Below are positions 6,637 through 36,273 of a stretch of 64,000 nucleotides of DNA, piece after piece (positions within the stretch are counted from its first letter, which is position 1; the number at the start of each line of letters is the position of its first letter). Position numbers and translations under genes: made by a program. The DNA lies in contig NZ_VOOR01000004.1 in assembly GCF_007993045.1 (NCBI RefSeq), positions 62,001-126,000 of the forward strand, given 5' to 3'. The notes beneath the pieces are model-generated. The model saw nothing but the letters and a program-made list of their open reading frames with translations, did no database searches and had not been told where the DNA came from. The DNA comes from Phaeodactylibacter luteus. GTDB lineage: Bacteria; Bacteroidota; Bacteroidia; Chitinophagales; Saprospiraceae.

Positions 6637-7794
6637 ATGAGTGCGGAGGAACTACTGAGTTTAGTAAGAGGAGGCGAGACCAGCCTTATTCAATTCAAAG
6701 AAAATGTAACAAATGCAGTAAGCATTGCTCAAGAGATGGTCGCCTTTTCTAACAGCAAAGGCGGGCAAATCCTGATTGGTATTAATGATAAAACCGGGGA
6801 AGCAACGGGGCTCAGCTTTCAGGATATTCAACGTATCAACAATCTACTGACAACTGCTGCAAACGAGCATGTGAAAAGCCCAATTATCATCGAGACGGAA
6901 ACTGTAGCGGTTAAAGATAAACAGGTTATTGTTGTTCGTGTGCCAGAAGGAGTTGACAAACCCTATAAAGATAATAGCGGATTAATCTTTGTGAAGAATG
7001 GGGCCGACAAGCGTAAGGTGACCAGTAATGAAGAATTATCCCGGCTGCTTCAAGGTAGTGGGAATCTATATGCTGAGGAACAAATCTTGCATCACTGCAC
7101 TTATGAAGACCTCAATTGGGATAAATTCAAACGTTTTTACGAAACCACCTACCAAGAAACGTGTGAATGGGAAGACCGGGACCGAATATTTGAAAATCTC
7201 CGCCTGGGCAAAGGTGGTAAACCCAATCTGGCGGCAGCATTACTCTTTACCGATAAACCAGACAAAACACTCACCGGATTCTTCATCACCGCTATTTGGT
7301 TCTGGGGCAACGAACTCCATGAACACGAATACCGATCAAGTGACAACTTCAAAGGGAATATTGCTGAACAGTATCAGCAAGCCTACTCCTTTATATATGC
7401 TGCGCTCAGAAAAGTACAAGCAGGGCAATCCTTCAACAGCCTGGGCATACCCGAAGTACCAAGTGTGGTCTTAGAAGAATTGTTAGTCAACGCCCTTATC
7501 CACCGGGATTACTTCATCAAAGACACCATCAAGCTTTTTCTGTTTGAAAACCGGATAGAAATCAAAAGCCCTGGCAAGCTGCCCAATAACCTGACGACCG
7601 AGCAGATCAAACGAGGTATCCGAAAAAAACGAAACAACATACTGGATTCCTTTGCCCCATCTTTGCTCAATTACCGCGGTGCCGGCAGCGGAATTCTGCG
7701 TGCCCTGCAAGCTCATCCGCACATTGACTTCATTAATGATGTAGAAGCCGAACAGTTCACAGTAATCATCCACCGCCCGGAAGAGAAAAGGTAA
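6637..7794 (+). CDS. AlbA_2 (Schlafen-like) domain protein with HATPase_c_4-type C-terminus
   Basis: A 385-residue protein. The N-terminal AlbA_2 domain, which binds nucleic acids in related proteins, is seen in ESLIQFKEN..., in AFSNSKGGQILIGINDKTGE (about residues 35-55), and in VPEGVDKPYKDNSGLIFVKNGADKR. The C-terminal half holds an ATPase-like region (EELLVNALIHRDYF, about residue 284, then PGKLPNNLTTEQI and RGAGSGILRAL). This is the common RecG-related putative regulator family of mobile and defence regions. Unlike many relatives it ends without a C-terminal winged helix; decayed copies of just such a tail flank it on the opposite strand. The gene is AT-richer than mnmE, which suggests transfer. 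Function is unproven; both transcriptional and defence roles have been proposed for the family. Confidence 0.82.
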   Translation: MSAEELLSLVRGGETSLIQFKENVTNAVSIAQEMVAFSNSKGGQILIGINDKTGEATGLSFQDIQRINNLLTTAANEHVKSPIIIETETVAVKDKQVIVVRVPEGVDKPYKDNSGLIFVKNGADKRKVTSNEELSRLLQGSGNLYAEEQILHHCTYEDLNWDKFKRFYETTYQETCEWEDRDRIFENLRLGKGGKPNLAAALLFTDKPDKTLTGFFITAIWFWGNELHEHEYRSSDNFKGNIAEQYQQAYSFIYAALRKVQAGQSFNSLGIPEVPSVVLEELLVNALIHRDYFIKDTIKLFLFENRIEIKSPGKLPNNLTTEQIKRGIRKKRNNILDSFAPSLLNYRGAGSGILRALQAHPHIDFINDVEAEQFTVIIHRPEEKR

Positions 7795-8590: not shown

Positions 8591-10627
8591 CTATACCCGC
8601 ACATAAGTCACCTCAAACCCCTTACACATCCGCTCCTCCTGCAGTGCATTCGCCAGGTTGAAAGCGTCCTTGTAGTCGTAGCGCTGGAAGATGTCCAGCC
8701 CGCGGTCAAGCAGGATTTTCCAACCGGTGTCTGTTTCTATAGAGCGGGCGTGTTGGGTGCCTTGTGGTTCGATCTCGTAGTCCATATCGATACCGGTACC
8801 CTGAAGATGAGTCTGGACTTGTATGAGGAGGCTGTCCGCTTCCTGTTTCTCCCCTGACTCGGCGTTGGTGAATACCTTTAGCCGGATTTCATCACCGACC
8901 GGCTTGATCCGGTATAGCATTTCGCAAAACTCCATCAGGTTTTTGACCTGGTGGAATTTCCGGAGGTAAGGGTCGATCAGGTGTATTTCGGTGGCGCCTT
9001 TGAGATAGGGTGCAAAGAGCCGCTGATAACTGATGCCTTTCTGGTTTTCCTTGATCACGATGTGCTGCTCCTCGGGCTCAGGGGCTGAGGGTGCCTTGCC
9101 TGGAGCAGCCTGGTCTTCAGCCGTGGTGGTTTCTTCTTCCTCTTCGGACATCTGGCGCACTAAATTATACTGAAGCTCTTCCAAGGTGAATACTTCCACC
9201 CGCTTGCCCGTCTCCAGGTCCTTATACGCAAACCGCACCTCCCGCTCCCGGAAGGTCTCGTCCATCTTCATGAGCTGCAACTTGACGCGGCGTCGGCTCT
9301 CGATGGCAAATTCCAACAGCTCTTTGACCTCTTCTTTTGTACACGACTGGTGCGGGTACAATACTTTCATGAGTCCGCTAAAGGTCTTTTGGATGGCTAC
9401 CTTGTCACGGGTGGTGATGGTGTCGTCTAATTTGAAGTAAGCATTGTAAGCATCCGAGTAGTCCAGTGTGCGCATATACCGCAGTACCTCCGCCAGGTAA
9501 TCGACTACAAAACCAAAGCCCTGAGTAAACATCTCTCCCCGGATAATTTCCACTTCCCAACCGGGCAGATAACTGTGCAGGCGATCCAGAAAGGCCGTGT
9601 CGTAATAGGCAGGAGGAAGTTGTTCGAATAAATCAGAATGCTTGAGCATGTAAGCCACTGACCGCTTGGTATTACCGATGAAAGACATGGAAGCTTCTGC
9701 CCCCATTGACTCCCTGCCCCGGCTAAAGCTCTGATTGGCCATATAGTTTTTCATGATATCCACCAGCCCTTTGGGGATGCGCTTGTCCGGGCCGGCAAAC
9801 TCATCGAAGGCAACGGAATCCCAGTAACCGACCAAGCCAATCTGGCCGGTGCTGTTGTTGACAAACAGCTTAGCGGCTGTGACCTCGCCTCCGGAAATCA
9901 GCATGCCGTGAGGCGAAAACTCAGAGAAAATATGGGACTTACCGGTTCCCTTGGGCCCCAGCTCTATGAGGTTGTAATTGCGCTCGCAGAAAGGGATCAG
10001 CCGGGTGAGCTGCAGCAGCTTATTGCGTTGCCCGAAGTGTTCCGGGTTGAAACCAATGCTTTGCATCAGAAAACCAGCCCACTCTTCCGTTGTAAACCGG
10101 GCTCTTTGCTGCTTGTATTGCTCAAAGTCAAAATTGGACAACTGTATTGGCTTGACTTTTTCAATCAGCCAGGGCGTAGCATCCCGCTCATCGGAGGGGA
10201 AGTAAGCCATATCGATCAGGCACCATACGCCACCGGTGAGCAGCTTTGGGAACTTTCGCACCCAGTCGTCTGATATGACGACTTTGCGGAGCCCCAGATT
10301 GGTAAAGGAGGCCTCGTGCACATCCCGGCGGTCATTGAGTGCTACGGTGATGCGGTCAATTATCCGGTAATTGCCCTTATCCCGGATGGTGGACTTGACC
10401 AACTCGGCTTCCTCCCGGTGCACATAGTGCCGGTTGATGATCTTGCGCACATTTTCGACGCCCTTTTCAATGGAGGCTTCATCGTCTGTAGCGCAGTATT
10501 GCCCCAGCAGGTATTCCAATACGTAAGTCGGGACCACAGCATTACCTTTGACTTTAGCGGTCAGGTCTTTGCGTACCACACGCCCGGGAAAATGCTCGTT
10601 AATCTTTTCGTCTAGTGTAGGTATCAT
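8591..10627 (-). CDS. brxL: BREX protein BrxL (Lon-like AAA+ ATPase)
   Basis: A 678-residue BrxL-type protein, the last gene of type 1 BREX phage-defence clusters. In characterised systems BrxL is a DNA-binding AAA+ oligomer needed for phage restriction. Visible are an N-terminal alpha-helical region (LDEKINEHFPGRVVRKDL), the Walker A block LGPKGTGKSHIF (about residue 243), AFDEFAGPDK (Walker B, about residue 290), and FIGNTKRSVAYML (sensor). The Lon-like C-terminal fold follows (HIVIKENQKGISYQRLFAPYL). It overlaps the end of pglZ by 4 bp (ATGA), indicating translational coupling. Length and order are as expected for type 1 BREX. Confidence 0.92.
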   Translation of the reverse strand: MIPTLDEKINEHFPGRVVRKDLTAKVKGNAVVPTYVLEYLLGQYCATDDEASIEKGVENVRKIINRHYVHREEAELVKSTIRDKGNYRIIDRITVALNDRRDVHEASFTNLGLRKVVISDDWVRKFPKLLTGGVWCLIDMAYFPSDERDATPWLIEKVKPIQLSNFDFEQYKQQRARFTTEEWAGFLMQSIGFNPEHFGQRNKLLQLTRLIPFCERNYNLIELGPKGTGKSHIFSEFSPHGMLISGGEVTAAKLFVNNSTGQIGLVGYWDSVAFDEFAGPDKRIPKGLVDIMKNYMANQSFSRGRESMGAEASMSFIGNTKRSVAYMLKHSDLFEQLPPAYYDTAFLDRLHSYLPGWEVEIIRGEMFTQGFGFVVDYLAEVLRYMRTLDYSDAYNAYFKLDDTITTRDKVAIQKTFSGLMKVLYPHQSCTKEEVKELLEFAIESRRRVKLQLMKMDETFREREVRFAYKDLETGKRVEVFTLEELQYNLVRQMSEEEEETTTAEDQAAPGKAPSAPEPEEQHIVIKENQKGISYQRLFAPYLKGATEIHLIDPYLRKFHQVKNLMEFCEMLYRIKPVGDEIRLKVFTNAESGEKQEADSLLIQVQTHLQGTGIDMDYEIEPQGTQHARSIETDTGWKILLDRGLDIFQRYDYKDAFNLANALQEERMCKGFEVTYVRV

Positions 10628-13122
10628 AGGTCAAATTCATCAAAGTCTTTGTCAAAAGCGATCAGCATGGTGAAGGCGTACTCCTGGTAACGGCTGCCCG
10701 ACTCGTCTTCCATCCGGAGGTAAACTTCCTGATTTTGGAACTGCTCCGCTTCCTGGGTGAACTGGAACGTCAGTTTCTGCTCTCTTAGCCGCTCTTCTGT
10801 GGCCGTGCTGCCGAAAACAACTTGCTGTGCATCGGAGATCAGCTTTCCGGAAGGCGCCACAAAACTAATCCTTAAAGTGCGTGGACGGGCCTTGCCGCCT
10901 ACAGGCTGCGTTTGATAGAAGGAGAGTACAACCTGGTAGGTGGTAATGCGGCTCACCGTTTTGATGAGTTCCACATCCACCCCTCTGATTTCGTCTGCCT
11001 TGTTCCGTGTCTTTTTGAAATGGATCAAAGGAACCAGGCACTCCTGTAAACTTAGCCCTCCGTGGACGTACCGGCTGCCGGAACCAGACTGCCGCATGCG
11101 GTTGACGGAGTTGGAAAAGGCCACTTCGAGATTCCCGTCCAGCTCTAACTCGGCAGCAGCCGATAGCGTAACGCCTTTCTCCGCCGATAACGCCTGCCCT
11201 AATACAAAGCGGCGGTCTTGCTTGTGGATATCCCCTTGTACCTTCACGTTGGAAAAGTCGCTCTCCGCGATGGGGGTGTACTGATACAGATATCCATGAT
11301 CGGCCGTTATCAGGACATTATTACCATTGATATTCGCAATTTTAGTGAGCAGCTCAATGATATGCTCAAACTCCTCCTCGGTACGGCGGAAGACTTTTTC
11401 TTCCTCCTGTTCGCCCGCCTTATCGATGGTGTTGGAGTAAATGTACACAACCTGATAGGGCGCTACCCATTTGCGTCCGGTGTGAGAAGGGGATGCGGCT
11501 TTCTTGAAATCTGCTGCTGTAATGGCAATTGCTTTCCCTTGTGCTGCCTGCTTCAGTATTTTATCCCGGTTGCGGGTGCCCTGTGTGCTCACGCCATCTG
11601 CCCACACCACCCCGTCCGGCTTCAGCTCCAGCTTTTCATGAGGCAATAGCGCAGCCATCCCCAATTGAGTATAGGTCGGTGCTGCCGCTACCATGGGCTC
11701 CAGGTTAGCCTCAAACCGGCTCACTTGCATTAGCCGGTCCGTTAATTCTGCCCCTGATTCGTAGCGCAGGGCATCTGAGATGATGACGAAGATTCGGTTA
11801 TCCCGGTCCAGAAAGGGCTGTACCGCCTCTTTCCAGAACTGCCGCTGCTGCCGAATACCGAGCGCTTTTAAGCAGGACGCATTGCCCAGGGCTTCCTGCC
11901 AGCGGTCACCCAGCCTGAGCAGGAAGCGATTGGTGTACAAGCGCTCAATCTTTTCCTGCAACTCCAGGAGCAGCCCCTGTTCCCCCGCCTGCTGAAAGCT
12001 CAGGATGAAGTTGCGGTAGCGCATATCAATTTGATACAGCTGCTTGCTGTACCGCTGTGCAGCATCCGGGGCGTCATCGAAATGCAGGTCTAATTTATCC
12101 TGATCCTGCAGGAACAGAATAGCATGCTCCAGCGCCTTGTAGTGCGCCTCATACGTTTCCGCCCAGTAGGTGAAGCGGCGGCGGTTGATATACCCCAGCA
12201 TTTTTTTGTAGTCGGGTTGATCCCTAAGGAGGTTGTCCCTTATCTGCCGGAGTATCTGCTGATCGAAGGCTTCATAGGTATCGTAATCGAGCAGGTCTTG
12301 TACAGGTCTGTCCATAATCCAGTCCTGTACATGCCACTCTTCCGCAAACCGGCGGGAGAACCACTCGAAAGCTTCTTTTTTGGAGGCACTGTCCTTCCAG
12401 CGCTTCATGAATACCATGGCGTCATTATTCAGCCTTGGCGTTTCGCGCTCCAACAGGGGGCTTGTTTCTGTCTGAAACAGGGCTTTGGCAACATCCAATA
12501 TGGAAGGCGACTCGTGCTGATATCCGAAACGGCGGCGCAGCGCCTCCCAAAGCGGCGGCAATAATGCGTATTTCTCTAAATCCTGAAAGCCGGGCTGTTC
12601 CTGCCCCTCTGCGGCCTCTGACAATAACTCCAGCAGCATAGCTTCTGCATCAGGAGGGGTACCCAGGGTAGCAGCGATGATTTTTTGAGCATAACGTTGC
12701 GGCGTTTCCTCTGCCGGTCGGGTCAACCGCTGCAGCGCTGCCCGCCGGTCTTTGGCATGAAAGAATGCAATATGCTTAGACACCAATGGCTTGAATGCTA
12801 TATCCAGCCCCAGCTCCTGCAGATACATAGCCGAGGCATCCGTAGTGAAGACATGGTTGGCCAGACAAAGGTCCAGGAGCCAGTTGTGCTCATTTTCCGG
12901 GCGGGCATAAGGAAAGAAAAGCAGGAATTTTTCCTTAGGCGCTTTTCGGAGGACCAGGTATTTGATCCGGAATTCATCGTGCTCTACCTTAATTTTATTG
13001 ACCTCAGGCAGCACGACTGCATTGAACTCGGACTCCATTTCCACGGCTTCTTTGCCGCCATACCAAAGGACAATACGCTTATCATCGAAAATCTGCTTAA
13101 GGGAATGCTCTATTCTATTCAT
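10624..13122 (-). CDS. pglZ: BREX alkaline-phosphatase-like protein PglZ
   Basis: An 832-residue PglZ/BrxZ, a signature protein of BREX. The C-terminal half carries an alkaline-phosphatase-superfamily core: IFVIISDALRYESGAEL (metal-binding Asp, about residue 450), VAAAPTYTQLGMAALLPH (nucleophile region), and VLITADHGYLYQY (metal-binding DHG). The long N-terminal part is helical and family-typical. In other BREX types PglZ is required for host methylation and phage defence. It is the first gene of the pglZ-brxL block, and its upstream region is shared with a divergent three-gene set on the plus strand. It is separated from pglX by 7.5 kb of accessory genes that usually would not be there. Confidence 0.93.
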   Translation of the reverse strand: MNRIEHSLKQIFDDKRIVLWYGGKEAVEMESEFNAVVLPEVNKIKVEHDEFRIKYLVLRKAPKEKFLLFFPYARPENEHNWLLDLCLANHVFTTDASAMYLQELGLDIAFKPLVSKHIAFFHAKDRRAALQRLTRPAEETPQRYAQKIIAATLGTPPDAEAMLLELLSEAAEGQEQPGFQDLEKYALLPPLWEALRRRFGYQHESPSILDVAKALFQTETSPLLERETPRLNNDAMVFMKRWKDSASKKEAFEWFSRRFAEEWHVQDWIMDRPVQDLLDYDTYEAFDQQILRQIRDNLLRDQPDYKKMLGYINRRRFTYWAETYEAHYKALEHAILFLQDQDKLDLHFDDAPDAAQRYSKQLYQIDMRYRNFILSFQQAGEQGLLLELQEKIERLYTNRFLLRLGDRWQEALGNASCLKALGIRQQRQFWKEAVQPFLDRDNRIFVIISDALRYESGAELTDRLMQVSRFEANLEPMVAAAPTYTQLGMAALLPHEKLELKPDGVVWADGVSTQGTRNRDKILKQAAQGKAIAITAADFKKAASPSHTGRKWVAPYQVVYIYSNTIDKAGEQEEEKVFRRTEEEFEHIIELLTKIANINGNNVLITADHGYLYQYTPIAESDFSNVKVQGDIHKQDRRFVLGQALSAEKGVTLSAAAELELDGNLEVAFSNSVNRMRQSGSGSRYVHGGLSLQECLVPLIHFKKTRNKADEIRGVDVELIKTVSRITTYQVVLSFYQTQPVGGKARPRTLRISFVAPSGKLISDAQQVVFGSTATEERLREQKLTFQFTQEAEQFQNQEVYLRMEDESGSRYQEYAFTMLIAFDKDFDEFDL

Positions 13123-13335: not shown

Positions 13336-13887
13336 ATGGAAGCCCTGCGAACTCTTCAAGTCCGAATTACCGGTGAGCGCAACAAACAGTCGTTGCGGCC
13401 ACAAGATCTTGATATCGATGAACTGATCAAGGCATTGGAGTATAGCCGGGATTTAGTTGCTCCCGACGGCAAATCCAGGCCTAACATTCTTGTAGAAGTC
13501 GAAGAAGGCAGTGTATTGCTAAAGCTTACCACAGCAGCGATGCTTGTCATTTCCACACAAGCATTGCTCACCGAAGTGCAAAAAACGTTTAATAAGTCCA
13601 TCTTAGCGCCTAAGCAGGCCGCTGCCCTCTCTTACTTTGATACGCTGGCGCAAAAAGAAGGATTTGATATTTCCTTTGGTACGACCACCGACGAGCCCGC
13701 GCTTACAATCAATAGAGAAAACGTTTGGGCGGATGCTCCGGAAGAAGCCGAATCCGACTACCTGAACCGGCTTATAGAGGAGGCTACGCCGCACTGGGTA
13801 TCAATTGGAGATACGGACGCGTGGTTGAAGTCCGTTCGGGCTCATAACGATCAACTATATCCGACAAGTTCAAATCCTTCTATCTAA
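13336..13887 (+). CDS. Small protein of unknown family, first gene of the ParB-ATPase/TOPRIM set
   Basis: A 183-residue soluble protein (MEALRTLQVRITGERNKQSL...). It opens with a beta-rich segment (PNILVEVEEGSVLLKL, residues about 52-67) and a short hydrophobic helix (TAAMLVISTQALL). It ends with an acidic tail region and I do not recognise the family. The start is the ATG at 13336; the frame also has a TTG two codons earlier. The next gene begins 24 bp after its stop in the same direction, so it very likely belongs to the same operon as the ParB-fused ATPase and the TOPRIM protein. It could be an adaptor, regulator or antitoxin-like partner; nothing in the sequence decides this. Confidence 0.8.
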   Translation: MEALRTLQVRITGERNKQSLRPQDLDIDELIKALEYSRDLVAPDGKSRPNILVEVEEGSVLLKLTTAAMLVISTQALLTEVQKTFNKSILAPKQAAALSYFDTLAQKEGFDISFGTTTDEPALTINRENVWADAPEEAESDYLNRLIEEATPHWVSIGDTDAWLKSVRAHNDQLYPTSSNPSI

Positions 13888-13910
13888 CTTCCCGTAAATG
13901 CGAGTTCATC

Positions 13911-16040
13911 ATGAATACCATTGTCAGACATATCAACCGGTTTGTACTTGACCCCAATAATTATCGCTTTAGGGATAGCTCTGGATACCTGCCAGTCAGT
14001 GAGGATAAAGTGGAAGATCCCAAAATACAACAACGAACCTACAATTTGCTTGTTGGTAAAAACTATGAACAGATTTCGGACTTAGTCGACTCTATGAAAG
14101 AGAACGGCTTTATTCCGGTTGACCAAATACAAGTAAAAGCCCTCTCATCTGACAATTACTTAGTTCTGGAAGGGAACCGGCGGATTGCTACATTAAAATA
14201 TCTGTTTAACGAATTCAAAAAAGGCAATGATGTCGGTAAACTAACCGAAAAAAGCTTCCGCAGCGTAGAAGTTGTCCTTAATTCAGATGAAGACTTAGCG
14301 GCCCACCTGGTGATAATGGGGCTCAAGCATATCAACGGCAACCGCAAATGGAAAGCGGTCAATCAGGCGCAGCTGATACAGGATTTAATCGAAATCCATG
14401 GAAAGTCGGAGGACGAAGTTTGCCGTTCTCTGGGAATTACCAAACAGGCATTACGCCGGGCAAGACGCACCCTGGCTTTCATCAACCGATACAAAGACAG
14501 CGACTATGGCGATCAGTTTAGCAGTGGAATGTTTTCCATTTTTGAAGAAGCCATTTCTAAACGTAATATGAAGGAATGGCTGCAGTGGAATGACGAATTG
14601 CTAATGCCTCAAAATGCCGGTAATGAAGAGCGGTTCTTTTCATGGGTTTCTTATGATGAGGTCAATGAAGGAGAAGGAGACGACATCCATATTGTCAAAA
14701 AAGAACCCATTATCACCAAGTACACACAGGTACGCGAGCTTAACAACTTTATACTTGACGAAAAGGCCGTGGCCCACATGGAGCATAGCCGCAGTATAAC
14801 GCAAGGGTATTCATTTAGCGAAGCTGTGGCCGAGTCCAAGTTCAAAAACGCCCTAAGCAATCTGCAAAGCAATGCTCAGGCACTTTTTAATTTCAGTGAA
14901 TTTATGGGGCAGACCGACTTGGATGCTGTAGCTGCAGTAAGAGATAAAATCGCACGACTCATTCCCGAAAATGGCAGCCGGGTTCGATATGGTGACGATA
15001 TTCGCCCTCATTACTTGTTCCGCTTTACTGAAAAGCACTTTTCTGCGCTACACATCGAACGCTACAACAGACTATTCGACCTGAAACTCAAAGCGATCAA
15101 TCAGGTTAACATTATAGCAGGCATTAACAATTCAGGTAAAACCTCCTTGCTGGAAGCCGTCTACAGCCTGACTCAACTGAATAATATTAAGGCCTACCTG
15201 GACATCGTCCGCTACAGGGGCAAATTTTATCAGGGGCTCAATACACAGTGGGTCGTCCGGCACCTTGGCGGCTCCATGAAAGTCAGTGGCGTTTTCAATG
15301 AGCGGCCCGTTTACTGGGAGCTCAGCCAGGAAGAAACAGACGATGACATTGATAAAACCCAGTACTTAAATAGTATTGTTTTACAAGCTCAGGTTGAGCA
15401 GGAAGCGTATGAAAGCACTGCTCACTTGTTTCAGGAAAAAGACAGTACGCTTTACTACAGAGAAATATTTGCCCTCTGCCGGTCCGCATTTACAAGCCCC
15501 TATCAGCATAATTATCACTTGCTCCGCCTGGCGCATGCACATGCTGTTCGGGAAAAAGTGATCGGTGATATTCTCCGGTTTTTGCGGGAGAAGGTGGACC
15601 CTATGCTGCAGGATATAGAATTGGTGGAAATTGCGGGTGAAAGCCGCTTTTACGTCAGTGCTCAAAATCATGACCAAAGCGTGGATATCACCCAATACGG
15701 AGAAGGGGTACAACGAATATTCGAAATCGCCCTGCTTACCGCTTATTGCAGTAACGGTGTACTCTGTATAGACGAATTTGAAAGCGCTATACACAAAGAC
15801 CTACTCGTCAGCTTCACTATGTTCTTACAAGATTTGGCGAATCGCTTCAATGTACAGATATTCCTTTCCACTCACAGCAAAGAGTGTATCGACGCCTTTG
15901 TAGAAAACGATTTCAAAAATGACCAGATCACAGCCTATGTACTCCGTGTAGGTGAAGAAGGGAACATAAAGGCCAAATACCTTGAAGGGACCCGCCTGGA
16001 GCGCCTCGTTGACAACATGAACATAGATATCCGAGTCTGA
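13911..16040 (+). CDS. ParB-like domain fused to an OLD-like ABC ATPase
   Basis: A 709-residue two-part protein. Residues about 1-230 resemble a ParB/Sulfiredoxin-type domain: the ParB-like motif LEGNRRIATLKYL (86-98) is followed by a helix-turn-helix-like region (KSEDEVCRSLGITKQALRRA). Residues about 375-700 are an OLD/AAA_15-type ABC ATPase: Walker A AGINNSGKTSLLE (402-414), a signature-like QYGEGVQRIFEIALL, Walker B GVLCIDEFESAIH (616-628), and the switch histidine in IFLSTHSKE. It lacks its own TOPRIM domain. The gene directly downstream supplies one, overlapping by one base (TGATG). Two-gene ATPase plus TOPRIM sets (class 2 OLD/Gabija, PARIS) are anti-phage systems; a ParB-type front end on the ATPase is the unusual part here. 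Confidence 0.85.
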   Translation: MNTIVRHINRFVLDPNNYRFRDSSGYLPVSEDKVEDPKIQQRTYNLLVGKNYEQISDLVDSMKENGFIPVDQIQVKALSSDNYLVLEGNRRIATLKYLFNEFKKGNDVGKLTEKSFRSVEVVLNSDEDLAAHLVIMGLKHINGNRKWKAVNQAQLIQDLIEIHGKSEDEVCRSLGITKQALRRARRTLAFINRYKDSDYGDQFSSGMFSIFEEAISKRNMKEWLQWNDELLMPQNAGNEERFFSWVSYDEVNEGEGDDIHIVKKEPIITKYTQVRELNNFILDEKAVAHMEHSRSITQGYSFSEAVAESKFKNALSNLQSNAQALFNFSEFMGQTDLDAVAAVRDKIARLIPENGSRVRYGDDIRPHYLFRFTEKHFSALHIERYNRLFDLKLKAINQVNIIAGINNSGKTSLLEAVYSLTQLNNIKAYLDIVRYRGKFYQGLNTQWVVRHLGGSMKVSGVFNERPVYWELSQEETDDDIDKTQYLNSIVLQAQVEQEAYESTAHLFQEKDSTLYYREIFALCRSAFTSPYQHNYHLLRLAHAHAVREKVIGDILRFLREKVDPMLQDIELVEIAGESRFYVSAQNHDQSVDITQYGEGVQRIFEIALLTAYCSNGVLCIDEFESAIHKDLLVSFTMFLQDLANRFNVQIFLSTHSKECIDAFVENDFKNDQITAYVLRVGEEGNIKAKYLEGTRLERLVDNMNIDIRV

Positions 16041-16921
16041 TGAAATTCATATTTGCATTCTGTGAAGGACCTCACGACGTTGCTTTTCTTTACAAAATCC
16101 TGAAATCGGAGGGGTACGTCAGCCACAATAAAAAACTAGGAGAATACCCAGCTCCAATCAATAACTTTTTGGTTAACGAAGCTACGCACAGTTCGCTCGA
16201 AGAAGTTAACCTTCAGTCAGCTACCCAGCGGCTCCTTCCTGCTGAAGTTATGAGAAAAGCAGATCCTGAACGTTTGATATTCTTATATGCCCTGGGGGGA
16301 GACAGCAGAAGCGCCGAACGTTTAAGGATTCTTCGCTTTTTACAGGATAGCTTCGCCATTTCCGATCCTGATGCGCTTTTTCCAGGCGAAGAACACAACG
16401 CGGCCGCTATTTATTTTTTTGATGCTGATGAGGCGGGTATACAAGCCCGATTTGATATAATCAATCGGGAACTTACTGAATTATGGGACGAGCCCACTCC
16501 GCTTTTATCTCCTGAAGATCTGATCGCAGAAGTTAACGGCCTACAAGTCGGTGGTTTTATTTTTTCAGCGAACGAGCAGAATACGGGGAAGCTGGAAGAT
16601 GCTCTACTCCCATTAATGCGGCTTGAAAATGAGGCGATCTTCGATGCCGCTCAGGCCTTTCTTGATGAGCACTATAATGCCGATCGCTGCAAAAAGCTCC
16701 GGTGGAGACCGGATACGGAAACCCAAGTCATGCAGGAAACCCGCTCCAGTCGCCGCCTAAAGTATGACCGCGATAAATCCATCATTGGGATTGTTGGCCA
16801 ACTACAGCAATCTGGCAAGGGTAATGGCCCCATCATTAGAGACACAGACTTCATCAACTTGCAAAAGTTGCAAAATCATGTTGTCTGCCAGGCAATAGTT
16901 AGATTCATTCGGAGGCTCTAA
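16040..16921 (+). CDS. TOPRIM-fold nuclease-like protein, partner of the ParB-ATPase
   Basis: A 293-residue protein with TOPRIM hallmarks. An early acidic strand-loop (MKFIFAFCEGPHDVAFL, Glu9) is followed by a DxD motif in IYFFDADEAGIQARF (Asp128 and Asp130). This arrangement is that of DUF3226/DUF4276/DUF4435-like TOPRIM nucleases that pair with OLD-type ATPases. In such systems the ATPase senses infection and the TOPRIM protein cuts nucleic acid (DNA, or tRNA in PARIS). The start codon overlaps the stop of the ATPase gene, so production is coupled. The C-terminal part (RSSRRLKYDRDKSIIG...) is basic and could bind nucleic acid. The target is not predictable from sequence. Confidence 0.8.
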   Translation: MKFIFAFCEGPHDVAFLYKILKSEGYVSHNKKLGEYPAPINNFLVNEATHSSLEEVNLQSATQRLLPAEVMRKADPERLIFLYALGGDSRSAERLRILRFLQDSFAISDPDALFPGEEHNAAAIYFFDADEAGIQARFDIINRELTELWDEPTPLLSPEDLIAEVNGLQVGGFIFSANEQNTGKLEDALLPLMRLENEAIFDAAQAFLDEHYNADRCKKLRWRPDTETQVMQETRSSRRLKYDRDKSIIGIVGQLQQSGKGNGPIIRDTDFINLQKLQNHVVCQAIVRFIRRL

Positions 16922-19518: not shown

Positions 19519-19943
19519 GCTACTTTCATCATTTGCTGATAAGCACCGGGGCCTTTGTCCACCTTACCCTCCACCGAATTATTTTTGTAATGAACCGACT
19601 TATCCACCAGCTGATTTGCATTAGCATGCACCTTAAAGGTCACATACTCGATCTGCTTGTACTGCTGCCTGGCTTTTTGTGGAGTCAAGATAATATCCTT
19701 ACCCAAGGCTGCCTCCATTTTGGCAATACTGCGCAGCGTCAGGTTGTGGCTGCCGCTCAGCCATTTGCTGATTTCTGCGTTGGTTTTCCCCATCTCCTTC
19801 GCAAAGTCCTGCTGAGACCAGCCCCGCTCTTCCAAAAGAGCATAGACTTGCTGTGAAATATCGAGGTTCTTATCCACGAAGCGCTCCACGTCTTCTGGTC
19901 CGCGCTCGTTAAAGAAGCTGGCAATATCTTTGTAGGTATTCAT
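19515..19943 (-). CDS. HigA-like antitoxin with probable chaperone-addiction tail
   Basis: A 142-residue protein. The N-terminal helix-turn-helix (XRE type) runs about residues 27-85 (QQVYALLEERGWSQQDFAK, then EMGKTNAEISKWLSGSHNL). It is followed by a 50-residue tail (QKARQQYKQIEYVTFKVHAN ... GPGAYQQMMKVA) that the paralogue at 16967-17236 lacks. In known toxin-antitoxin-chaperone systems such a tail is the SecB-binding, aggregation-prone segment. The gene overlaps both neighbours by 4 bp, which strongly supports a three-gene unit. It is expected to repress its own promoter upstream of the toxin gene. Confidence 0.8.
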   Translation of the reverse strand: MNTYKDIASFFNERGPEDVERFVDKNLDISQQVYALLEERGWSQQDFAKEMGKTNAEISKWLSGSHNLTLRSIAKMEAALGKDIILTPQKARQQYKQIEYVTFKVHANANQLVDKSVHYKNNSVEGKVDKGPGAYQQMMKVA

Positions 19944-20434
19944 ATCTCGAGTTCTAATGATTGGTCATAAAGGAGTAAATCAGTCTCCGGATCAAGCGAA
20001 ATATCGCCATCCATCTGTGCCTGACTTATAGCTTTTGTGAGCTTGTTGGCTAGAAAAAAGTGTGGCCGTACATTTGGGCAATCCTGGGCTGTAGCCGCAG
20101 TTTTTACACCGCCGTTGAACAGGAATACTGCAGAACGGCTCATCCACATACAATACAAACGTAAATGGCAATCTACATTTAGATAGCGGGGCGGGGGCGG
20201 TAGGGCACGGGCTTCTCCACCCCCGTAGCCTTCCGGCCGGAAATACCGAGGCTGCGCGCCCAACTCAGTGCCAAGTTTGCGCAGCCACGATCGGATAATA
20301 TATAGTTCTTCTGATTTTGCATGCTCATTGATGAAATTAAAGAACATCGATTGCTCCTTTTCTTCAAAGCGTACCGTGTAAAAGGTCACTCTTTTAAAAG
20401 CTATCGCTTGTTCTATACTAACAAAGGTATTCAT
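19940..20434 (-). CDS. HigB/RelE-like toxin of the toxin-antitoxin-chaperone module
   Basis: A 164-residue protein (MNTFVSIEQAIAFKRVTFYT...), the first gene of the overlapping three-gene set. It has the pattern of Bacteroidota RelE/HigB-like toxins: an N-terminal FYTVRFEE strand, the long helix FFNFINEHAKSEELYIIRSW, then ARYFRPEG-like and LRLYCMWMSRSAVFLFNGGVKTA strands. The expected activity is ribosome-dependent mRNA cleavage. The start at 20434 is preferred over 20494 because the extra 20 residues are low-complexity. Assignment as toxin rests on this pattern and on gene order. Confidence 0.7.
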   Translation of the reverse strand: MNTFVSIEQAIAFKRVTFYTVRFEEKEQSMFFNFINEHAKSEELYIIRSWLRKLGTELGAQPRYFRPEGYGGGEARALPPPPRYLNVDCHLRLYCMWMSRSAVFLFNGGVKTAATAQDCPNVRPHFFLANKLTKAISQAQMDGDISLDPETDLLLYDQSLELEI

Positions 20435-20577
20435 CAATAAGTTTATTTTCAAGGTTTTTAACTTAAAAGTTAAAAACGTGGTCAAATTTAACACCTCCTG
20501 CTCACAATTCCTACCACAAACGCTTCTTTTTCAGTGTGTGCTACTCGCAAAAAATCAGGAGTAGACACCTTTCACTC

Positions 20578-21999
20578 TTAGCCCTTGCTGCTCATTGCCC
20601 ATTCCAAAGCCTCTAAAGCTTCCTCGAAATACTCACTTTCATGCTTAAAGAAAGCTCTATTCATGGCGTTTGTAAACCGCTCTTGCAAAGTAGCCCCCTC
20701 CGCTTTTTCTAAATCTAATTGAATCTCATAGATATGGTAGTAGGATTTGCCCAGAGTACCGCCGAAGGCTTCCTTGACTCTGGAACCATTCACACCAATG
20801 AGCTTCTTATGTCTTAGAGTCCTTTTCACCGCTTCTCCATGCACTGTGTTAGTTGGATGGTCTAGCTCAAAATAAACCACGCAAGTAGAATGAAAAACAA
20901 TTCTGTCTAAATCTATCCAAAACCGGAACTTGTCTGCTAACTTATTGTACTTTTCTTCAAATGAACTTTCGCTCGGATCAAAGAAAAAATTGCGCTTACG
21001 TGCTGCCCGCCAGGGACGAGGTGGGTAGCCAAATTCTTTCATGGCATTAAAAACTGACCTGCACACGTAATCTAAAACCTCATAATCTTTCTGCTTAAGC
21101 TCCCTTATTGCTTCTTGCTTCGCTCTAAAAACCTCCAATAATTCCTCGCGGCTTTGTGTGTAATCGGTGCTCATATAAAAAGAATTGATGTTAGCAATGT
21201 ATTCCTTGAGGAAGAGCAGGTGGCGGTCGTCTGATTCCAGAAAACTGCCGTGCAGGTTTTGGACTACCTCATCTACCAGTTCTTTATGCAGTATGCTGAC
21301 GTAATAGCCATCCGGGGGGGCTTTCGTGGCTAAATCAGCGCCTGTGATGGAAAGTACAATCCCCAGTTTCTGATCAGCCTGTACGCTATTCCAGTATTCC
21401 TGCAGATCATTGTAGAGGGGAGCATAGACTTTGTTCTCAATAATGATCGCCCAGCTTGGCGGGGTTGGCGGGTCGTTCTCATCTTCTGTCTCAAGGGGGG
21501 CATCCTGAATGAGGAGATCAATCCGTTTGCCATTTTCTGTGGTTTGCTCCCGCTCTACCGTGTACTCGGCACTTTGAATTTCTTCTTTTAAGATATTGAA
21601 ATTCCCTTTTAAATTCCGCTTGTATCCATATACTTGCAGCAGATTATGCAATGCAGCTTTTGCTAAGTGGTCTTTTTCCAACTTTCCTTCAAATAGTGCA
21701 AGGCGTGCCGTTCTACTATACCCTTTAATGACTCCATGATCTTCGATGTAAACCGAACGGCTGAGTTTTTCCCGCAGTGTATTGACATCAGCTTCCAATT
21801 TACGCTCATACACATTCAGCAGGCTTTCCAGAAACAGCGTGGAAAAGCCATGCTCTTCTTCTTTGTCAAAGTAGAAGCTCAGGAAGTTGCTGATTACGTT
21901 TTCCCAGCGGGGAAAGCCCGATATCTCAATCAGGTTCTTCCGCTGTTTGGGCACTTCCGGGAGGTCGTCAAAGAGGTTGTCCAGCCAGTTTAGGTCCAT
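20578..21999 (-). CDS. PD-(D/E)XK nuclease superfamily protein downstream of pglX
   Basis: A 473-residue protein with a PDDEXK_4-like nuclease core: GKRIDLLIQDAPLE (catalytic Asp, about residue 160), then WAIIIENKVYAPLYNDLQEYW (the E-x-K pair, about residues 184-200). The C-terminal half (about residues 290-470) is of unknown function. The start is 33 bp after the pglX stop in the same direction, so it looks like the last gene of the brxA-brxB-brxC-pglX operon. Nucleases of this kind are frequent BREX passengers; whether it adds restriction activity or is independent is unknown. Confidence 0.82.
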   Translation of the reverse strand: MDLNWLDNLFDDLPEVPKQRKNLIEISGFPRWENVISNFLSFYFDKEEEHGFSTLFLESLLNVYERKLEADVNTLREKLSRSVYIEDHGVIKGYSRTARLALFEGKLEKDHLAKAALHNLLQVYGYKRNLKGNFNILKEEIQSAEYTVEREQTTENGKRIDLLIQDAPLETEDENDPPTPPSWAIIIENKVYAPLYNDLQEYWNSVQADQKLGIVLSITGADLATKAPPDGYYVSILHKELVDEVVQNLHGSFLESDDRHLLFLKEYIANINSFYMSTDYTQSREELLEVFRAKQEAIRELKQKDYEVLDYVCRSVFNAMKEFGYPPRPWRAARKRNFFFDPSESSFEEKYNKLADKFRFWIDLDRIVFHSTCVVYFELDHPTNTVHGEAVKRTLRHKKLIGVNGSRVKEAFGGTLGKSYYHIYEIQLDLEKAEGATLQERFTNAMNRAFFKHESEYFEEALEALEWAMSSKG

Positions 22000-22032: not shown

Positions 22033-25000
22033 TCACACCACCACCCCCCAGTCAAAATCCACCCAGTCAAAGCCTTCCACTTTTTTGCGGGCTTTGGCAT
22101 CGTTGAGGCTGGTGACGGTGAGGACGGCCCGGCCCATCTTGTTGTAGTTCACCAGCACGCCGTCGTCCAGGTCGAGGGGGAGCTTGCGGGCGGCGAGGGG
22201 GTAGAGGATGTCGCGCTCGTACTGCCGTACGTCTTCCAGTATGGTGTCGATCTGATCGATGTCTTTTTGGGCCTGCGTCTGCTCGCGGGGGCTGCCGTCG
22301 GCCTTGAGGGTGATCTCCACAAGGGTGATGCGCTGGGCTTCGAGCTTGCGGATGAAGTCGCGCACGTAGTCGTTGAGCAGGCGGCTGACCGTGTCCGGGC
22401 GGTAGCGGTGCACGTACACGAGGGCCTGAAAGTGCTTACCGGGAGAGCTGAAGAGCCAGTAGATGGGGCGCTTCTTGTAGCGCTTGAGGTGGTCTTTGTA
22501 GAACTCCCGCACAAAGTAGCTGCGGATGTCCCGCCCGAGGGCGTTTTCCACAAACTGCAGGTTGGCTTCGAACTGCTCGGGGCCGAAGGCGGCTTCCAGA
22601 AAGCGGCGGAAGCGCCCGGCCACATCGTCCGGGAAGTAGTCTTCGGCCAGCAGGGGGATGATGCCGTCTTCGTCGGGCAGGAAGGTGGCGGTGTCGGGGC
22701 TCGTGCCGGTCTTACTCCAGTACTCGGGCAGGCCTTCCCCCGCATTGGCGAGGATGAGCCCGTCTTTATCCAGACTGTAGCGCCCCATCATGCAGCCTAC
22801 GGCGTAGCTGATGAACTGGGCGAGGACTTCGGCATCATCGAATACGAGGGCGTCCTGCACAAACTGCTGCCGGGCCGCGCTGCCGACCGGGCAGTCCTGC
22901 CGTTTGGACAGCTTTACCGTAGCGGCCTTCAGCGCCTTGCGGTCGAGCTCCGACTGCAGGATGGTGATGTCTTCGAGGGGGACTTCCGGGCTGAGCTCCG
23001 CCTGCAAGCCGTAGAGATCAATGAAGATGCGGTTGAGCGCCTCCTCCTGCGCGTGCAGCTGCGCGAACTGCTCCCGCCAATGCGCCTGATAGGTGGCGTA
23101 GGCTTCGGACAGGGACCTGGCACCACCGCTGAGCAGGGGATGGCGCTGAAAGTCCCAGGAGGTTTCGTGGGCGTCCCAGTCGGATTTGGAGATTTCGATA
23201 TTTTCTAAAGTTAGCTCATCTATAGACAGCGAATTATCTATTGAATACCTAATAGGCAATAATTTTAAATCTCCTACCTGAAAGTTAATTGTTGGGCTAA
23301 ATACTTTAAGAAATTCTATAGTAAGTTTAGAATTAAGAAAGGCAACAAGGTAGTTTTTATATCTCTCTTCGGGAAAAGCCATTGAACCACCTACATCAAA
23401 GATACAGTTATAATTGACAGCCCTACTACTAAACCCAAAACTTGAGATTAAACCCCAAGTAATTCCTTTCCGGAAATAGTGCTTTTCAGATCTAGGAATA
23501 TTTGGGTTTTTTCCGATCAAGGCTTCTCTTATTTGGGCTCCATCATTATGCCAGTTTACTACATCATTATAGTTTCCATACCACCTCCTGAAACCTCCTC
23601 CTTTTATATAAGGAAACCATTTTGCTCTGCTCTTTTTTGCATCTTCTGAATTAGCACTATAAAAGCTAATTGCTCCTAATTGTACTTCATTCCAGTTTCG
23701 AGTAAACCTATTGTTGTTTGTAGTCCCTAAACCTTGTCTCGGAATTCCTAGTTCTTCAAAGATATAATCTGATTTAAATGCGGAGATAAACGAATCACTC
23801 AACCAATACCCAATCGGGCTGCCCGGGATTTTTTGGAAGTCTTGCTGAGCTTTCAAGCTATACCTTCCATTGTTTTTCACCGGAAAGACTTTCGGTGCTT
23901 CCTTCTCTCTATCTAAATCGTCGATTGAGAGATACGAGTAAACACCCACTTCTCTAGAAGTTGGTTTCGAGTTTTGAAGAATAAAGCTTGTCGTTCCAAA
24001 AGCAATTCTCATTACATGCCACCCAAAATGGGTAAGGCTGCAGAACCTCAAGTTATTTAAGAGCCATAATCGTAGTTGTTCAAAGCTGGACAGAAACATC
24101 CAGCTCTCCATTGTGACTAAACCAATAAGTCCTTTGCTATATGTGGCTGTAGTCGCTCGCTGAATAAAACAGGAAAACAGATCAGACTTCGACATTGGGT
24201 AATTTTCTTTAACCCATTTTGAGAGCGCCGGGTTCATCTTCCCGCCCCCCATATACGGCGGATTGTCCACCACGCAGTGCACTTGCTGCCCCAGCTCCTG
24301 CAGCTGCTGCAGGGCGGTGTGCAGGTGCTGCAATCGGGTACGCAGGAAGACATCATTGGTCGCCCGGGTCTGCGCTACTGCTTGTAGTGCCTGTCCAATT
24401 TCCGCAGCATCCGCCTGCGGCTGTATCAGGGAGCCGAGGTTGGTAGCCTGCTGCAGGTGCTCCAAGTCCGTGCGCAAGGCATCTGACGGTTGCAGCCCGC
24501 AGGCTTGCAGGGCTTCGGCGGTTTCCTCCGTGCTAAGCGGCAAATCCTGAAACTGCAGGATGTGGGGGCGGGCCTCTTTTCGGAAAATCCGGCGATAGTA
24601 GCCCCGGGCTTTCATCATCAGGGCGAAGCCTGCGAGCTGTGCGGCCCGCTCATCGATCTCAAACCCACGCAGGTTGTGCTGCAGGATGAGCTGCGGGATT
24701 TCGCTTTTGCCGTAGCCTTCCTCCTCGTACATAAGGGTCAGCAGCTCAAAGGCATACAGCAGGATGTGCCCGCTCCCGCAGGCCTGATCCAGAAAGCGGA
24801 TATCGGTCACGCTCTCGATGCGCAAAAAGTCGGCCGCCTGTGCCGCCGGGGAGTCGATGTAGTACGGCATGTGGGCGCGCAGCCCGGAGTTGGGGCGGTT
24901 TTGCAGCCACAGCTTGCCGAGGGTATTCTGCACCATATACTCCACAATCCAGCGGGGCGTAAACAGCTGCGTGGCGGCCGGCAGGTCAGCCGGGGCCACC

Positions 25001-25647
25001 CGCCCCTTGGCGGCAAACACCGCATCCTTCTTTTCCGAGATATAAAACTGGTACAGCCAGCCGATGATTTCCACATTTTGGGCATCGGTGCCCGACATGC
25101 CCTCCCGTACATCCTGCACAATGCTCCGGGCGCTGAGCAGGTCATTGGGCACGAGCAGCTCGGTATAGTCCTGCAGGCGCTGAAACATAAAGGGCATGGC
25201 GCGATGCCATTGGTTGCAGGCGGCAATGAGCAGCAGTTGGTAGGCTTCATTCTGCGGGTCGGCCGAGGGCAGCTCCCCGTTGAGCAGCTGCAGCACCCGC
25301 TTGCGGTCCACCGGCAGGTCCTCCTCGATCAGCCCCCGCTTGGCCTGCTGCAGGATTTCCGGCAGGGTCTCCCCATCGGCCGGGCTGAGCACCCGCGGGC
25401 GGGTGTAGTCGTTGGCATCCATAAAGCGCAGGGCCACCAGCCGGTTGAACCAGGTGTAGGCCACTTCCTCCACGAGGGCGGCTTTCCCTTTTTCCTCCAG
25501 CCCCCGCTTCAGCTGTTCGATTTGCTGCTTGCGTTCGCGCTGTTCGAGGCTATCGGTACGCAGCACCTGCTCCAGGCGGTTGCTGATTTGCTCGATCAGC
25601 TTGCGGCGGGCGTCTTGTGCGAAGGCTTTGAGGGTGGTGGTTTGCAT
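22033..25647 (-). CDS. pglX: BREX adenine-specific DNA methyltransferase PglX
   Basis: A 1204-residue type 1 BREX PglX. It N6-methylates adenine at a non-palindromic site to mark host DNA and is needed for defence. The SAM-binding motif I is LDQACGSGHILLYAF (286-300); the catalytic motif IV is NPPYMGGGKMN (about 462-472). The region between about residues 469 and 817 (23197-24240) is markedly AT-rich compared with the GC-rich flanks and corresponds to the region expected to set target specificity, suggesting exchange of that segment. Complete and of normal length, between brxC (54 bp upstream) and the PD-(D/E)XK gene. Confidence 0.95.
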   Translation of the reverse strand: MQTTTLKAFAQDARRKLIEQISNRLEQVLRTDSLEQRERKQQIEQLKRGLEEKGKAALVEEVAYTWFNRLVALRFMDANDYTRPRVLSPADGETLPEILQQAKRGLIEEDLPVDRKRVLQLLNGELPSADPQNEAYQLLLIAACNQWHRAMPFMFQRLQDYTELLVPNDLLSARSIVQDVREGMSGTDAQNVEIIGWLYQFYISEKKDAVFAAKGRVAPADLPAATQLFTPRWIVEYMVQNTLGKLWLQNRPNSGLRAHMPYYIDSPAAQAADFLRIESVTDIRFLDQACGSGHILLYAFELLTLMYEEEGYGKSEIPQLILQHNLRGFEIDERAAQLAGFALMMKARGYYRRIFRKEARPHILQFQDLPLSTEETAEALQACGLQPSDALRTDLEHLQQATNLGSLIQPQADAAEIGQALQAVAQTRATNDVFLRTRLQHLHTALQQLQELGQQVHCVVDNPPYMGGGKMNPALSKWVKENYPMSKSDLFSCFIQRATTATYSKGLIGLVTMESWMFLSSFEQLRLWLLNNLRFCSLTHFGWHVMRIAFGTTSFILQNSKPTSREVGVYSYLSIDDLDREKEAPKVFPVKNNGRYSLKAQQDFQKIPGSPIGYWLSDSFISAFKSDYIFEELGIPRQGLGTTNNNRFTRNWNEVQLGAISFYSANSEDAKKSRAKWFPYIKGGGFRRWYGNYNDVVNWHNDGAQIREALIGKNPNIPRSEKHYFRKGITWGLISSFGFSSRAVNYNCIFDVGGSMAFPEERYKNYLVAFLNSKLTIEFLKVFSPTINFQVGDLKLLPIRYSIDNSLSIDELTLENIEISKSDWDAHETSWDFQRHPLLSGGARSLSEAYATYQAHWREQFAQLHAQEEALNRIFIDLYGLQAELSPEVPLEDITILQSELDRKALKAATVKLSKRQDCPVGSAARQQFVQDALVFDDAEVLAQFISYAVGCMMGRYSLDKDGLILANAGEGLPEYWSKTGTSPDTATFLPDEDGIIPLLAEDYFPDDVAGRFRRFLEAAFGPEQFEANLQFVENALGRDIRSYFVREFYKDHLKRYKKRPIYWLFSSPGKHFQALVYVHRYRPDTVSRLLNDYVRDFIRKLEAQRITLVEITLKADGSPREQTQAQKDIDQIDTILEDVRQYERDILYPLAARKLPLDLDDGVLVNYNKMGRAVLTVTSLNDAKARKKVEGFDWVDFDWGVVV

Positions 25648-29288: not shown

Positions 29289-29885
29289 TTACAGATTGAT
29301 ATTATCGAGATTGAACGCCCGGTAGTAGTTATCGTCTTTCAGGGTATCAAACAAACGCAAGTAAGAACCACTTCTGGAAGTGACGTAGGCCCCAGGGAAA
29401 AACATGATAGTGGGGGCTGTTTTCGCTATGCGCTGCAGGTTATTCAGCACATTGTGCGACCGGATGAAAGGAAAAACCTGCCCTACTCCGGTGATAAAAA
29501 GCACCTGATGCGCCCTCGCTTTTATCCGCCGGTCTATGGCCGGGATCATCTCCGTTTCCACATCGAGAATGGACTGCATCATTTCGAGAAACTCGGCTTT
29601 CGTGCTTTGTGTTTCCTCCTCAAAAACGTCTTCCAGGTCGTCTTCCTGCTGAATGATTTCTAAAGATAAATCAAATAGATTAATTTCTAATGTATCGATA
29701 CCCAAAGTCTTCAGCCGCTTTTGCAGGGCATCAATGGCTTCGACAACTTCATTTTCCTGCGTAGCCGGATAAGGGGCGATGTAGAAGGGGATTTCATTGC
29801 CAATCGCCTCCATCTTCAGGAAGGCATCCTGCTGGATTTGCCGGGAGTAGTGTTCAAATTTTTCCGAAATATTTTCCTTTTGCAT
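29289..29885 (-). CDS. brxB: BREX protein BrxB (DUF1788)
   Basis: A 198-residue BrxB. The family-typical core is HQVLFITGVGQVFPFIRSHNVLNNLQ (about 131-156), followed by TIMFFPGAYVTSRSGSYLRLFDTL. Its precise role in BREX is unsettled. The start codon shares one base with the stop of brxA, so the two are translated together. Confidence 0.92.
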   Translation of the reverse strand: MQKENISEKFEHYSRQIQQDAFLKMEAIGNEIPFYIAPYPATQENEVVEAIDALQKRLKTLGIDTLEINLFDLSLEIIQQEDDLEDVFEEETQSTKAEFLEMMQSILDVETEMIPAIDRRIKARAHQVLFITGVGQVFPFIRSHNVLNNLQRIAKTAPTIMFFPGAYVTSRSGSYLRLFDTLKDDNYYRAFNLDNINL

Positions 29886-30517
29886 TACTTTATTCGGTTG
29901 ATCAATTGCCTGATATCCCGGTCGGAGACCAGCAAATAACGCAACAATTTAGGGTCTTCGTCAATCAGCGCCTCGGCAACGTAGGTGGTCACTACCGGTG
30001 GTGTAATGACCCGCTCCTCCCGGTTGTTAACGATGCCGGCTTCTTCCATCATGCGGTAAAGCCGGGAGCGCAGTTTCTGGTAGGTCGAATCACTGACCTG
30101 TTGCAGCTTGGGCTCTTTGAGCGTCTGCGCTTCCAGGAACTCCGTATAGTCCGACTCGTGCACGATATACTCGAAGGCCTGAATTTTATTGAGCAGGACC
30201 TCGAGTGCAAATGCCCCGATAAATGGGTAGACCTTACAAGCCGCCACCCATAACAGCTGCTGTTGCTCAGTGAAGGTGCCTTCAGCAAGCCGTTCCATTT
30301 GCAGGGGCGTCATCTCTTTCAACCGGGTGCGCACCTCATAGAAAGACCGCACCGTCGTTTTCAGCTGATTCTTTTGCAGGGCATTTTCTCCAACCACCTC
30401 TGCCTGTACAGCCTCCCAATCCTTTAGATCAGCGTACAACTGTGCGATTTTGATGCTTTCCTCCACCTGCAGGGCAGCACCGGAAAAGGACAGTCTGTAC
30501 GGACGGGACGCAGCCAT
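29885..30517 (-). CDS. brxA: BREX protein BrxA (DUF1819)
   Basis: A 210-residue BrxA, a small helical DNA-binding protein in studied systems. The family features are YRLSFSGAALQVEESIKIA at the N-terminus, WVAACKVYPFIGAFALEVL in the middle and KLLRYLLVSDRDIRQLI at the end. It usually opens type 1 BREX operons; here it follows the ddmE-like gene by only 40 bp in the same direction, with no terminator seen between them. Confidence 0.92.
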   Translation of the reverse strand: MAASRPYRLSFSGAALQVEESIKIAQLYADLKDWEAVQAEVVGENALQKNQLKTTVRSFYEVRTRLKEMTPLQMERLAEGTFTEQQQLLWVAACKVYPFIGAFALEVLLNKIQAFEYIVHESDYTEFLEAQTLKEPKLQQVSDSTYQKLRSRLYRMMEEAGIVNNREERVITPPVVTTYVAEALIDEDPKLLRYLLVSDRDIRQLINRIK

Positions 30518-36148: not shown

Positions 36149-36176
36149 CTGGTATCATTGATTTATATCGATAAAG

Positions 36177-36193: not shown

Positions 36194-36233
36194 ATTGCCA
36201 TTTACATGTTTTTAATGTATTTTAAGCTTCTGG

Positions 36234-36268: not shown

Positions 36269-36273
36269 ATAGC

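What the first reader, a model, noticed from the sequence alone, without database searches (positions are those of the whole stretch)
13336..16921. Three-gene set: unknown protein, ParB-fused OLD-like ATPase and TOPRIM nuclease
The ATPase has a ParB-type N-terminal half (EGNRRIATLKY motif) fused to an OLD-like ABC ATPase; the next gene, overlapping by one base, is a TOPRIM protein with the E...DxD motif. A 183-aa unknown protein leads the operon. ATPase-plus-TOPRIM pairs (Gabija, PARIS, class 2 OLD) are anti-phage, but a ParB domain as sensor or DNA clamp on the ATPase is not a form I recognise. It sits inside a split BREX locus, divergent from pglZ. It is a good candidate for an undescribed defence system.
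Basis: partly seen in the sequence, partly recalled or inferred. Interest (0 to 1): 0.8.

Follow-up and report, generated by a model that had tools for sequence, protein, structure and literature searches.

The report
BREX-embedded ParB-ATPase and TOPRIM nuclease pair
Inside a bacterial anti-virus gene cluster sits a two-gene 'alarm and nuclease' module, already listed as an untested defence candidate, here led by a third gene from a family that elsewhere pairs with RNA-cutting toxins; it is probably a backup that stops infected cells when the main defence fails.

Summary
Gene 1 (13336-13887, 183 aa), a 709-aa ATPase (13911-16040) and a 293-aa TOPRIM-type protein (16040-16921, one-base overlap) form one + strand operon between pglX and pglZ of a type 1 BREX locus. 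The ATPase has a ParB-like N-terminal part (ParB_N plus HTH) and an OLD/PtuA/Rad50-type ABC domain.

'Undescribed' is not supported for the core. ATPase and TOPRIM match PADLOC models PDC-M38A (E 1e-291, full length, ParB part included) and PDC-M38B (E 8e-111), an unvalidated phage-defence candidate. No held paper mentions it.

New here: (1) M38A, with M38B wherever the contig reaches it, is cargo in prophages (two in the gpA-portal defence hotspot of P2-like phages, one lambdoid, satellite-like elements). It is also embedded in a second BREX locus and between hsdS and hsdR of a type I R-M system. (2) Gene 1 is not core: seen only in two species of one genus, absent from other M38A loci with readable upstream sequence. 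It is a shortened member of a family whose other members lie directly upstream of PIN RNase genes (16 of 19).

Most likely: a PARIS-like backup suicide module (ATPase sensor, TOPRIM effector) with gene 1 as added regulator. Not tested experimentally.

The parts
13336..13887 (+). Gene 1, 183 aa: shortened homologue of a ~260-aa protein family that normally precedes a PIN RNase gene; proposed regulator/antitoxin-like partner
   Evidence: No Pfam, NCBIfam or PADLOC hit; homologues by profile, E 2e-18 to 8e-8 per genome; 16 of 19 relatives followed by a PIN gene; purifying selection, dN/dS 0.26
13911..16040 (+). M38A: 709-aa ParB-like/ABC ATPase fusion (PADLOC PDC-M38A)
   Evidence: PDLC04607 E 9.8e-292 over aa 3-708
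13947..14210 (+). ParB_N-like module of M38A (aa 13-100), with EGNRR at aa 87-91 (14169-14183)
   Evidence: EGNRR invariant in 10 sequences
14358..14495 (+). ParB-type HTH region of M38A (about aa 150-195)
   Evidence: collinear with the HTH of Noc/ParB; weak Pfam HTH hits; confident helices in the model
15024..16028 (+). OLD/PtuA/Rad50-type ABC ATPase domain of M38A (aa 372-706); Walker A 15120-15143, Walker B 15765-15776
16040..16921 (+). M38B: 293-aa TOPRIM-type nuclease (PADLOC PDC-M38B; Pfam DUF3226); E9 at 16064-16066, D128-x-D130 at 16421-16429
   Evidence: PDLC04615 E 7.8e-111, DUF3226 E 1.3e-7, invariant E9/D128/D130
8591..10627 (-). BREX context: brxL with C-terminal PLD-like domain
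10624..13122 (-). BREX context: pglZ, divergent from the operon
   Evidence: TIGR02687 E 1.6e-201
22033..25647 (-). BREX context: pglX
   Evidence: NF033452, 1291 bits
25702..30517 (-). BREX context: brxC, brxB, brxA

Best explanation
M38A and M38B form a two-gene anti-phage module of the OLD-ABC plus separate TOPRIM kind (PARIS-like in layout), carried inside BREX as a backup. M38A, an ATP-dependent dimer or oligomer, holds the TOPRIM protein M38B inactive or docked. Its ParB-like NTP-binding and HTH part is the sensor: it binds DNA or a nucleotide and registers a sign of infection, such as phage DNA intermediates or an anti-restriction protein that has disabled BREX. Activation frees or switches on M38B, whose TOPRIM site cleaves nucleic acid (tRNA, as in AriB, or DNA) and stops the infected cell. 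Gene 1 is an optional regulator taken from a PIN toxin partner family, which here restrains or tunes the nuclease. Shown: domains, conserved catalytic residues, operon layout, repeated association with defence loci and prophage hotspots, and gene 1's family and its PIN neighbours. Inferred: the sensing step, the trigger, the substrate, suicide rather than restriction, and gene 1's role.
For: PADLOC PDC-M38A/B full-length matches. Independent embedding in a second BREX locus (between pglX and pglZ, L058) and between hsdS and hsdR of a type I R-M locus (L057). Cargo between gpA and portal gpQ in two P2-like prophages (L048, L050), in a lambdoid prophage (L049), in primase-bearing satellite-like contigs (L051, L052) and in a P2-like tail-end position (L019). 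The gpA-gpQ interval is a known defence hotspot (PMC9122126). ABC domain closest to AbiLi, AriA and NsnB families and to PtuA, Rad50 and AriA structures. The AriA sensor/AriB TOPRIM tRNase and WonA/WonB, where the ATPase is needed for nuclease toxicity, are working precedents (PMC12409363; PMC12137116). Strong constraint on M38A (dN/dS 0.03) and M38B (0.13). Gene 1 family lies upstream of PIN genes in 16 of 19 loci.
Against: No experiment exists on any M38 member found here. M38B has no significant sequence match to a solved TOPRIM protein and no PADLOC match to AriB. The ParB part could not be modelled confidently and scores below Pfam's cut-off. Gene 1 is absent from most M38 loci, so it cannot be needed in general, and its model was unusable (pLDDT 38).
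Confidence: 0.6

Rival explanations
1. Direct DNA restriction: the ParB/HTH part loads M38A on invading DNA as an NTP-gated clamp, and M38B nicks or cuts that DNA, like Gabija or class 1 OLD, sparing the cell.
For: ParB_N-HTH order is kept; EGNRR is invariant; TOPRIM nucleases of Gabija and class 1 OLD cut DNA (PMC10568477); relatives of the ParB part pair with Dam-like or nuclease-like genes in phages (L020, L053).
Against: The TOPRIM is a separate protein, as in tRNA-cutting PARIS; no specificity determinant for foreign DNA is visible; BREX already restricts DNA.
Confidence: 0.27
2. Addiction or partition module: the ParB-like ATPase and TOPRIM stabilise mobile elements, and presence in BREX is hitch-hiking.
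For: ParB homology; presence in prophages and satellites; gene 1 comes from a PIN-linked, toxin-antitoxin-like family.
Against: No ParA or parS partner seen; repeated embedding inside two types of modification-based defence; placement in a known defence hotspot.
Confidence: 0.07
3. Gene 1 has nothing to do with M38AB (a question apart from the core mechanism): it is the leftover partner of a lost PIN toxin and only shares the promoter.
For: Missing from every other M38A locus with readable upstream sequence; lacks the central part of its family; evolves fastest of the operon.
Against: Kept intact and under purifying selection in two species (dN/dS 0.26); the same short form and a gap of 23 bases to M38A in both; the C-terminal motif shared with PIN partners is kept.
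Confidence: 0.35

Closest known systems
PADLOC PDC-M38 (phage defence candidate M38A/M38B)
   Same: Both proteins match over full length; model PDLC04607 includes the ParB part
   Different: No held paper mentions it and it is unvalidated; gene 1 is not among its models
PARIS (AriA/AriB; class 4 OLD)
   Same: ABC ATPase and separate TOPRIM gene; BREX and prophage association; AriA models match the ABC domain (E 2e-19)
   Different: ParB/HTH part on the ATPase; TOPRIM is DUF3226-type with no AriB match
AbiL (AbiLi/AbiLii)
   Same: Best named match of the ABC domain (E 8e-26)
   Different: No AbiLii match for M38B; no ParB part in the AbiLi models matched
Menshen (NsnABC)
   Same: A review lists a DUF262 (ParB/Srx-like fold) protein and a TOPRIM component in Menshen (PMC10952713); NsnB weakly matches the ABC domain
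   Different: No NsnA or NsnC match; ParB-like part is fused here
PD-lambda-5
   Same: ParB part matches PD-Lambda-5_A (E 9e-12)
   Different: No methyltransferase; ABC ATPase instead
WonAB and other OLD-ABC plus nuclease pairs
   Same: Two-gene ATPase/nuclease logic in prophages
   Different: WonB is PD-(D/E)xK, not TOPRIM

Membership tests
PADLOC PDC-M38 | M38A and M38B models both match, adjacent genes | tested here: met
   E 9.8e-292 and 7.8e-111; overlap by one base
PARIS | AriA-type ABC ATPase | tested here: inconclusive
   AriA models match only the ABC domain, far weaker than M38A; AriA-AriB structure 8v46 Z 15.9, level with other ABC ATPases
PARIS | AriB-type TOPRIM partner | tested here: not met
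   no AriB model among hits at E<=1
OLD class 1-3 / Gabija | TOPRIM fused to the ATPase; GajB helicase or retron next to it | tested here: not met
   TOPRIM is a separate gene; neighbours are pglZ and small ORFs
AbiL | AbiLii partner protein | tested here: not met
   no AbiLii hit for M38B
Menshen | NsnA and NsnC present | tested here: not met
   no NsnA or NsnC hit for gene 1, the ParB part or M38B
ParB superfamily | ParB_N domain followed by HTH | tested here: inconclusive
   below Pfam cut-off; PDB profile hits are nearly all ParB/Noc, collinear, best E 0.0036
ParB superfamily | CTP binding and clamp closure | not testable with these tools
   GERR-type box reads GNRR here; biochemistry needed
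TOPRIM nuclease | Conserved E and DxD | tested here: met
   E9, D128, D130 invariant in 8 homologues; DxDxxG aligns on the DnaG and YbjD motifs, though not significantly
PIN toxin-antitoxin pair | Gene 1-type protein followed by a PIN gene | tested here: not met
   gene 1 is followed by M38A, not PIN; relatives have PIN in 16 of 19
Anti-phage system | Protects cells against phage | not testable with these tools
   no wet-lab test

The most novel reading that the evidence does not exclude
A three-part immune switch: a ParB-type NTP/DNA clamp built into an OLD ATPase senses infection and controls a TOPRIM effector, and a PIN-partner (antitoxin-like) protein has been re-used to hold a different nuclease in check, so that regulators can be swapped between unrelated toxins.
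Probability: 0.2. Interest if true: 0.75.

Novelty: new variant of a known kind. Interest (0 to 1): 0.45.

Why it matters
It turns a catalogue entry (PDC-M38) into a testable system: intact catalytic motifs, homologues in P2-like prophage defence hotspots, and two kinds of host defence locus that carry it. If the ParB part is the sensor, it would link the ParB NTP switch to immune ATPases. Gene 1 also points to a family of PIN-linked proteins without a Pfam, NCBIfam or PADLOC model.

Tried and rejected
Three-gene conservation: rejected, gene 1 is absent upstream of M38A in L004, L019, L048, L049, L050, L051, L052, L057 and L058; L043 could not be judged (contig end). AlphaFold2 of gene 1 (two sequences): pLDDT 38, unusable. 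The ParB half of the M38A model is low confidence, so structure search tested only the ABC domain. PDB sequence searches with single proteins found nothing. The gene 1 scan of viral contigs found no relative; the family alignment A3 was too diverse to search with. No full-length M38A in the plasmid or phage record collections, and no near-identical L050-type pair in the E. coli genomes. hhalign of M38B against E. coli DnaG and YbjD: not significant. Krishnan et al. 2020, which may describe ParB-fused OLD ATPases, is not held, so priority for the fusion in the literature is open.

Full report
What is there. Three + strand genes at 13336-16921: gene 1 (183 aa), M38A (709 aa) and M38B (293 aa; its ATG shares one base with the M38A stop). 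They lie opposite to, and inside, a type 1 BREX locus: brxA 29885-30517, brxB, brxC and pglX 22033-25647 on one side, pglZ 10624-13122 and brxL 8591-10627 on the other.

Identity of the core pair. M38A matches PADLOC PDC-M38A model PDLC04607 over aa 3-708 with E 9.8e-292; M38B matches PDC-M38B with E 7.8e-111. Other M38A models are about 370 aa long and match only the ABC domain, so PADLOC holds fused and unfused forms. PDCs are candidates found by embedding in known systems, mostly without experimental validation (PMC12988326). No paper in the held library mentions PDC-M38.

Domains. The N-terminal part is ParB-like: Pfam ParB_N is weak, but a 10-sequence profile retrieves ParB and Noc structures as nearly all of its few hits, with the HTH aligned in the right order, and PADLOC PD-Lambda-5_A proteins match it (E 9e-12). 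EGNRR and an HxxGxxxW motif are invariant. The C-terminal half (aa 372-706) is an ABC domain of the OLD/PtuA/Rad50 type with intact Walker A, Walker B and H-loop. M38B keeps E9, D128 and D130 in all eight homologues; its TOPRIM nature rests on DUF3226 and these motifs, not on a structure.

Where else it occurs. M38A with the ParB part is rare: 2 of 395 genomes of the phylum sample, 3 of 398 of the order and 2 of 149 of the family, the window's own genome counted in each. L058 carries M38AB directly between pglX and pglZ of another BREX locus, with no gene 1; L057 carries it between hsdS and hsdR (named by eye from their sequences) of a type I R-M locus beside a Schlafen-like gene. In viral contigs, full-length M38A (36-40% identical to the window protein) occurs in L019 and L048-L052, with M38B directly after it wherever the held sequence continues (L051 ends with M38A). 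L048 and L050 place it between the replication gene A and the portal gene, the interval described as an antiviral hotspot of P2-like phages (PMC9122126). L049 is lambdoid by its RusA and replication-O-like genes; L051 and L052 carry a primase that suggests a satellite (by inference). This is strong circumstantial evidence for defence.

Gene 1. It is not part of the conserved unit. It is found with M38AB only in the window genome and L002; the genus search recovers what is by position and score the L002 locus in a second genome of the same genus. All other loci with readable upstream sequence lack it. A profile found relatives in 20 other genomes of a 395-genome class sample. They are mostly 255-265 aa, and 16 of the 19 examined are followed on the same strand, mostly with a short overlap, by a PIN-domain gene. 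Gene 1 lacks about 85-90 residues of the middle but keeps the C-terminal motif. Between the two species it evolves faster (dN/dS 0.26) than M38A (0.03) and M38B (0.13), yet under constraint. The simplest reading is an antitoxin-like or regulatory protein moved from a PIN partner to this operon; a relic is the rival.

Mechanism. By analogy with AriA/AriB (ATPase sensor, TOPRIM tRNase; PMC12409363) and WonA/WonB (the ATPase is required for nuclease toxicity; PMC12137116), M38A is most likely the sensor and controller and M38B the effector. A BREX survey names TOPRIM-linked OLD-ABC modules as the most prominent of its OLD-ABC backup effectors and suggests that they answer phage anti-restriction (PMC12839542). 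The ParB part most likely adds DNA or nucleotide sensing. Trigger, substrate and outcome are inferred.

Novelty. The pair is a member of a catalogued candidate family. What is added here is its prophage-hotspot and R-M distribution, the evidence that gene 1 is dispensable, and gene 1's link to a PIN-associated family. I rate it a new variant of a known kind, interest 0.45.

Noticed in passing
L023-L046 (e.g. L046 4384-5644, L026 1477-2746): A two-gene pair, ~260-aa protein plus overlapping PIN-domain gene, in about 5% of sampled genomes of the class; the first protein has no Pfam, NCBIfam or PADLOC match above cut-off. Looks like an uncatalogued toxin-antitoxin-like pair.
   Followed up: partly
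window 19940-21999: Two further PADLOC candidates, PDC-M64A-like and PDC-S26 (PD-(D/E)XK), embedded between pglX and pglZ.
   Followed up: no
window 8591-10627: BrxL with a C-terminal phospholipase D-like (HKD) domain.
   Followed up: no
window 30558-37713: A CARF-sigma54 activator (RtcR-like, 36274-37713) divergent from a DdmD-like helicase (32714-36148) and a 719-aa protein without a Pfam or PADLOC hit, just upstream of brxA.
   Followed up: no
window 6637-7794: Schlafen/AlbA_2-type protein next to brxL.
   Followed up: no
L053 3261-5296 and L020 587-2853: ParB-like parts without the ABC domain, paired with a nuclease-like protein (by eye) and with a Dam-like methylase (by eye): the ParB part is a mobile module.
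   Followed up: partly
L002 13407-14705: A different 432-aa ATPase gene (by eye, ABC type) in the same BREX interval of the sister species.
   Followed up: no
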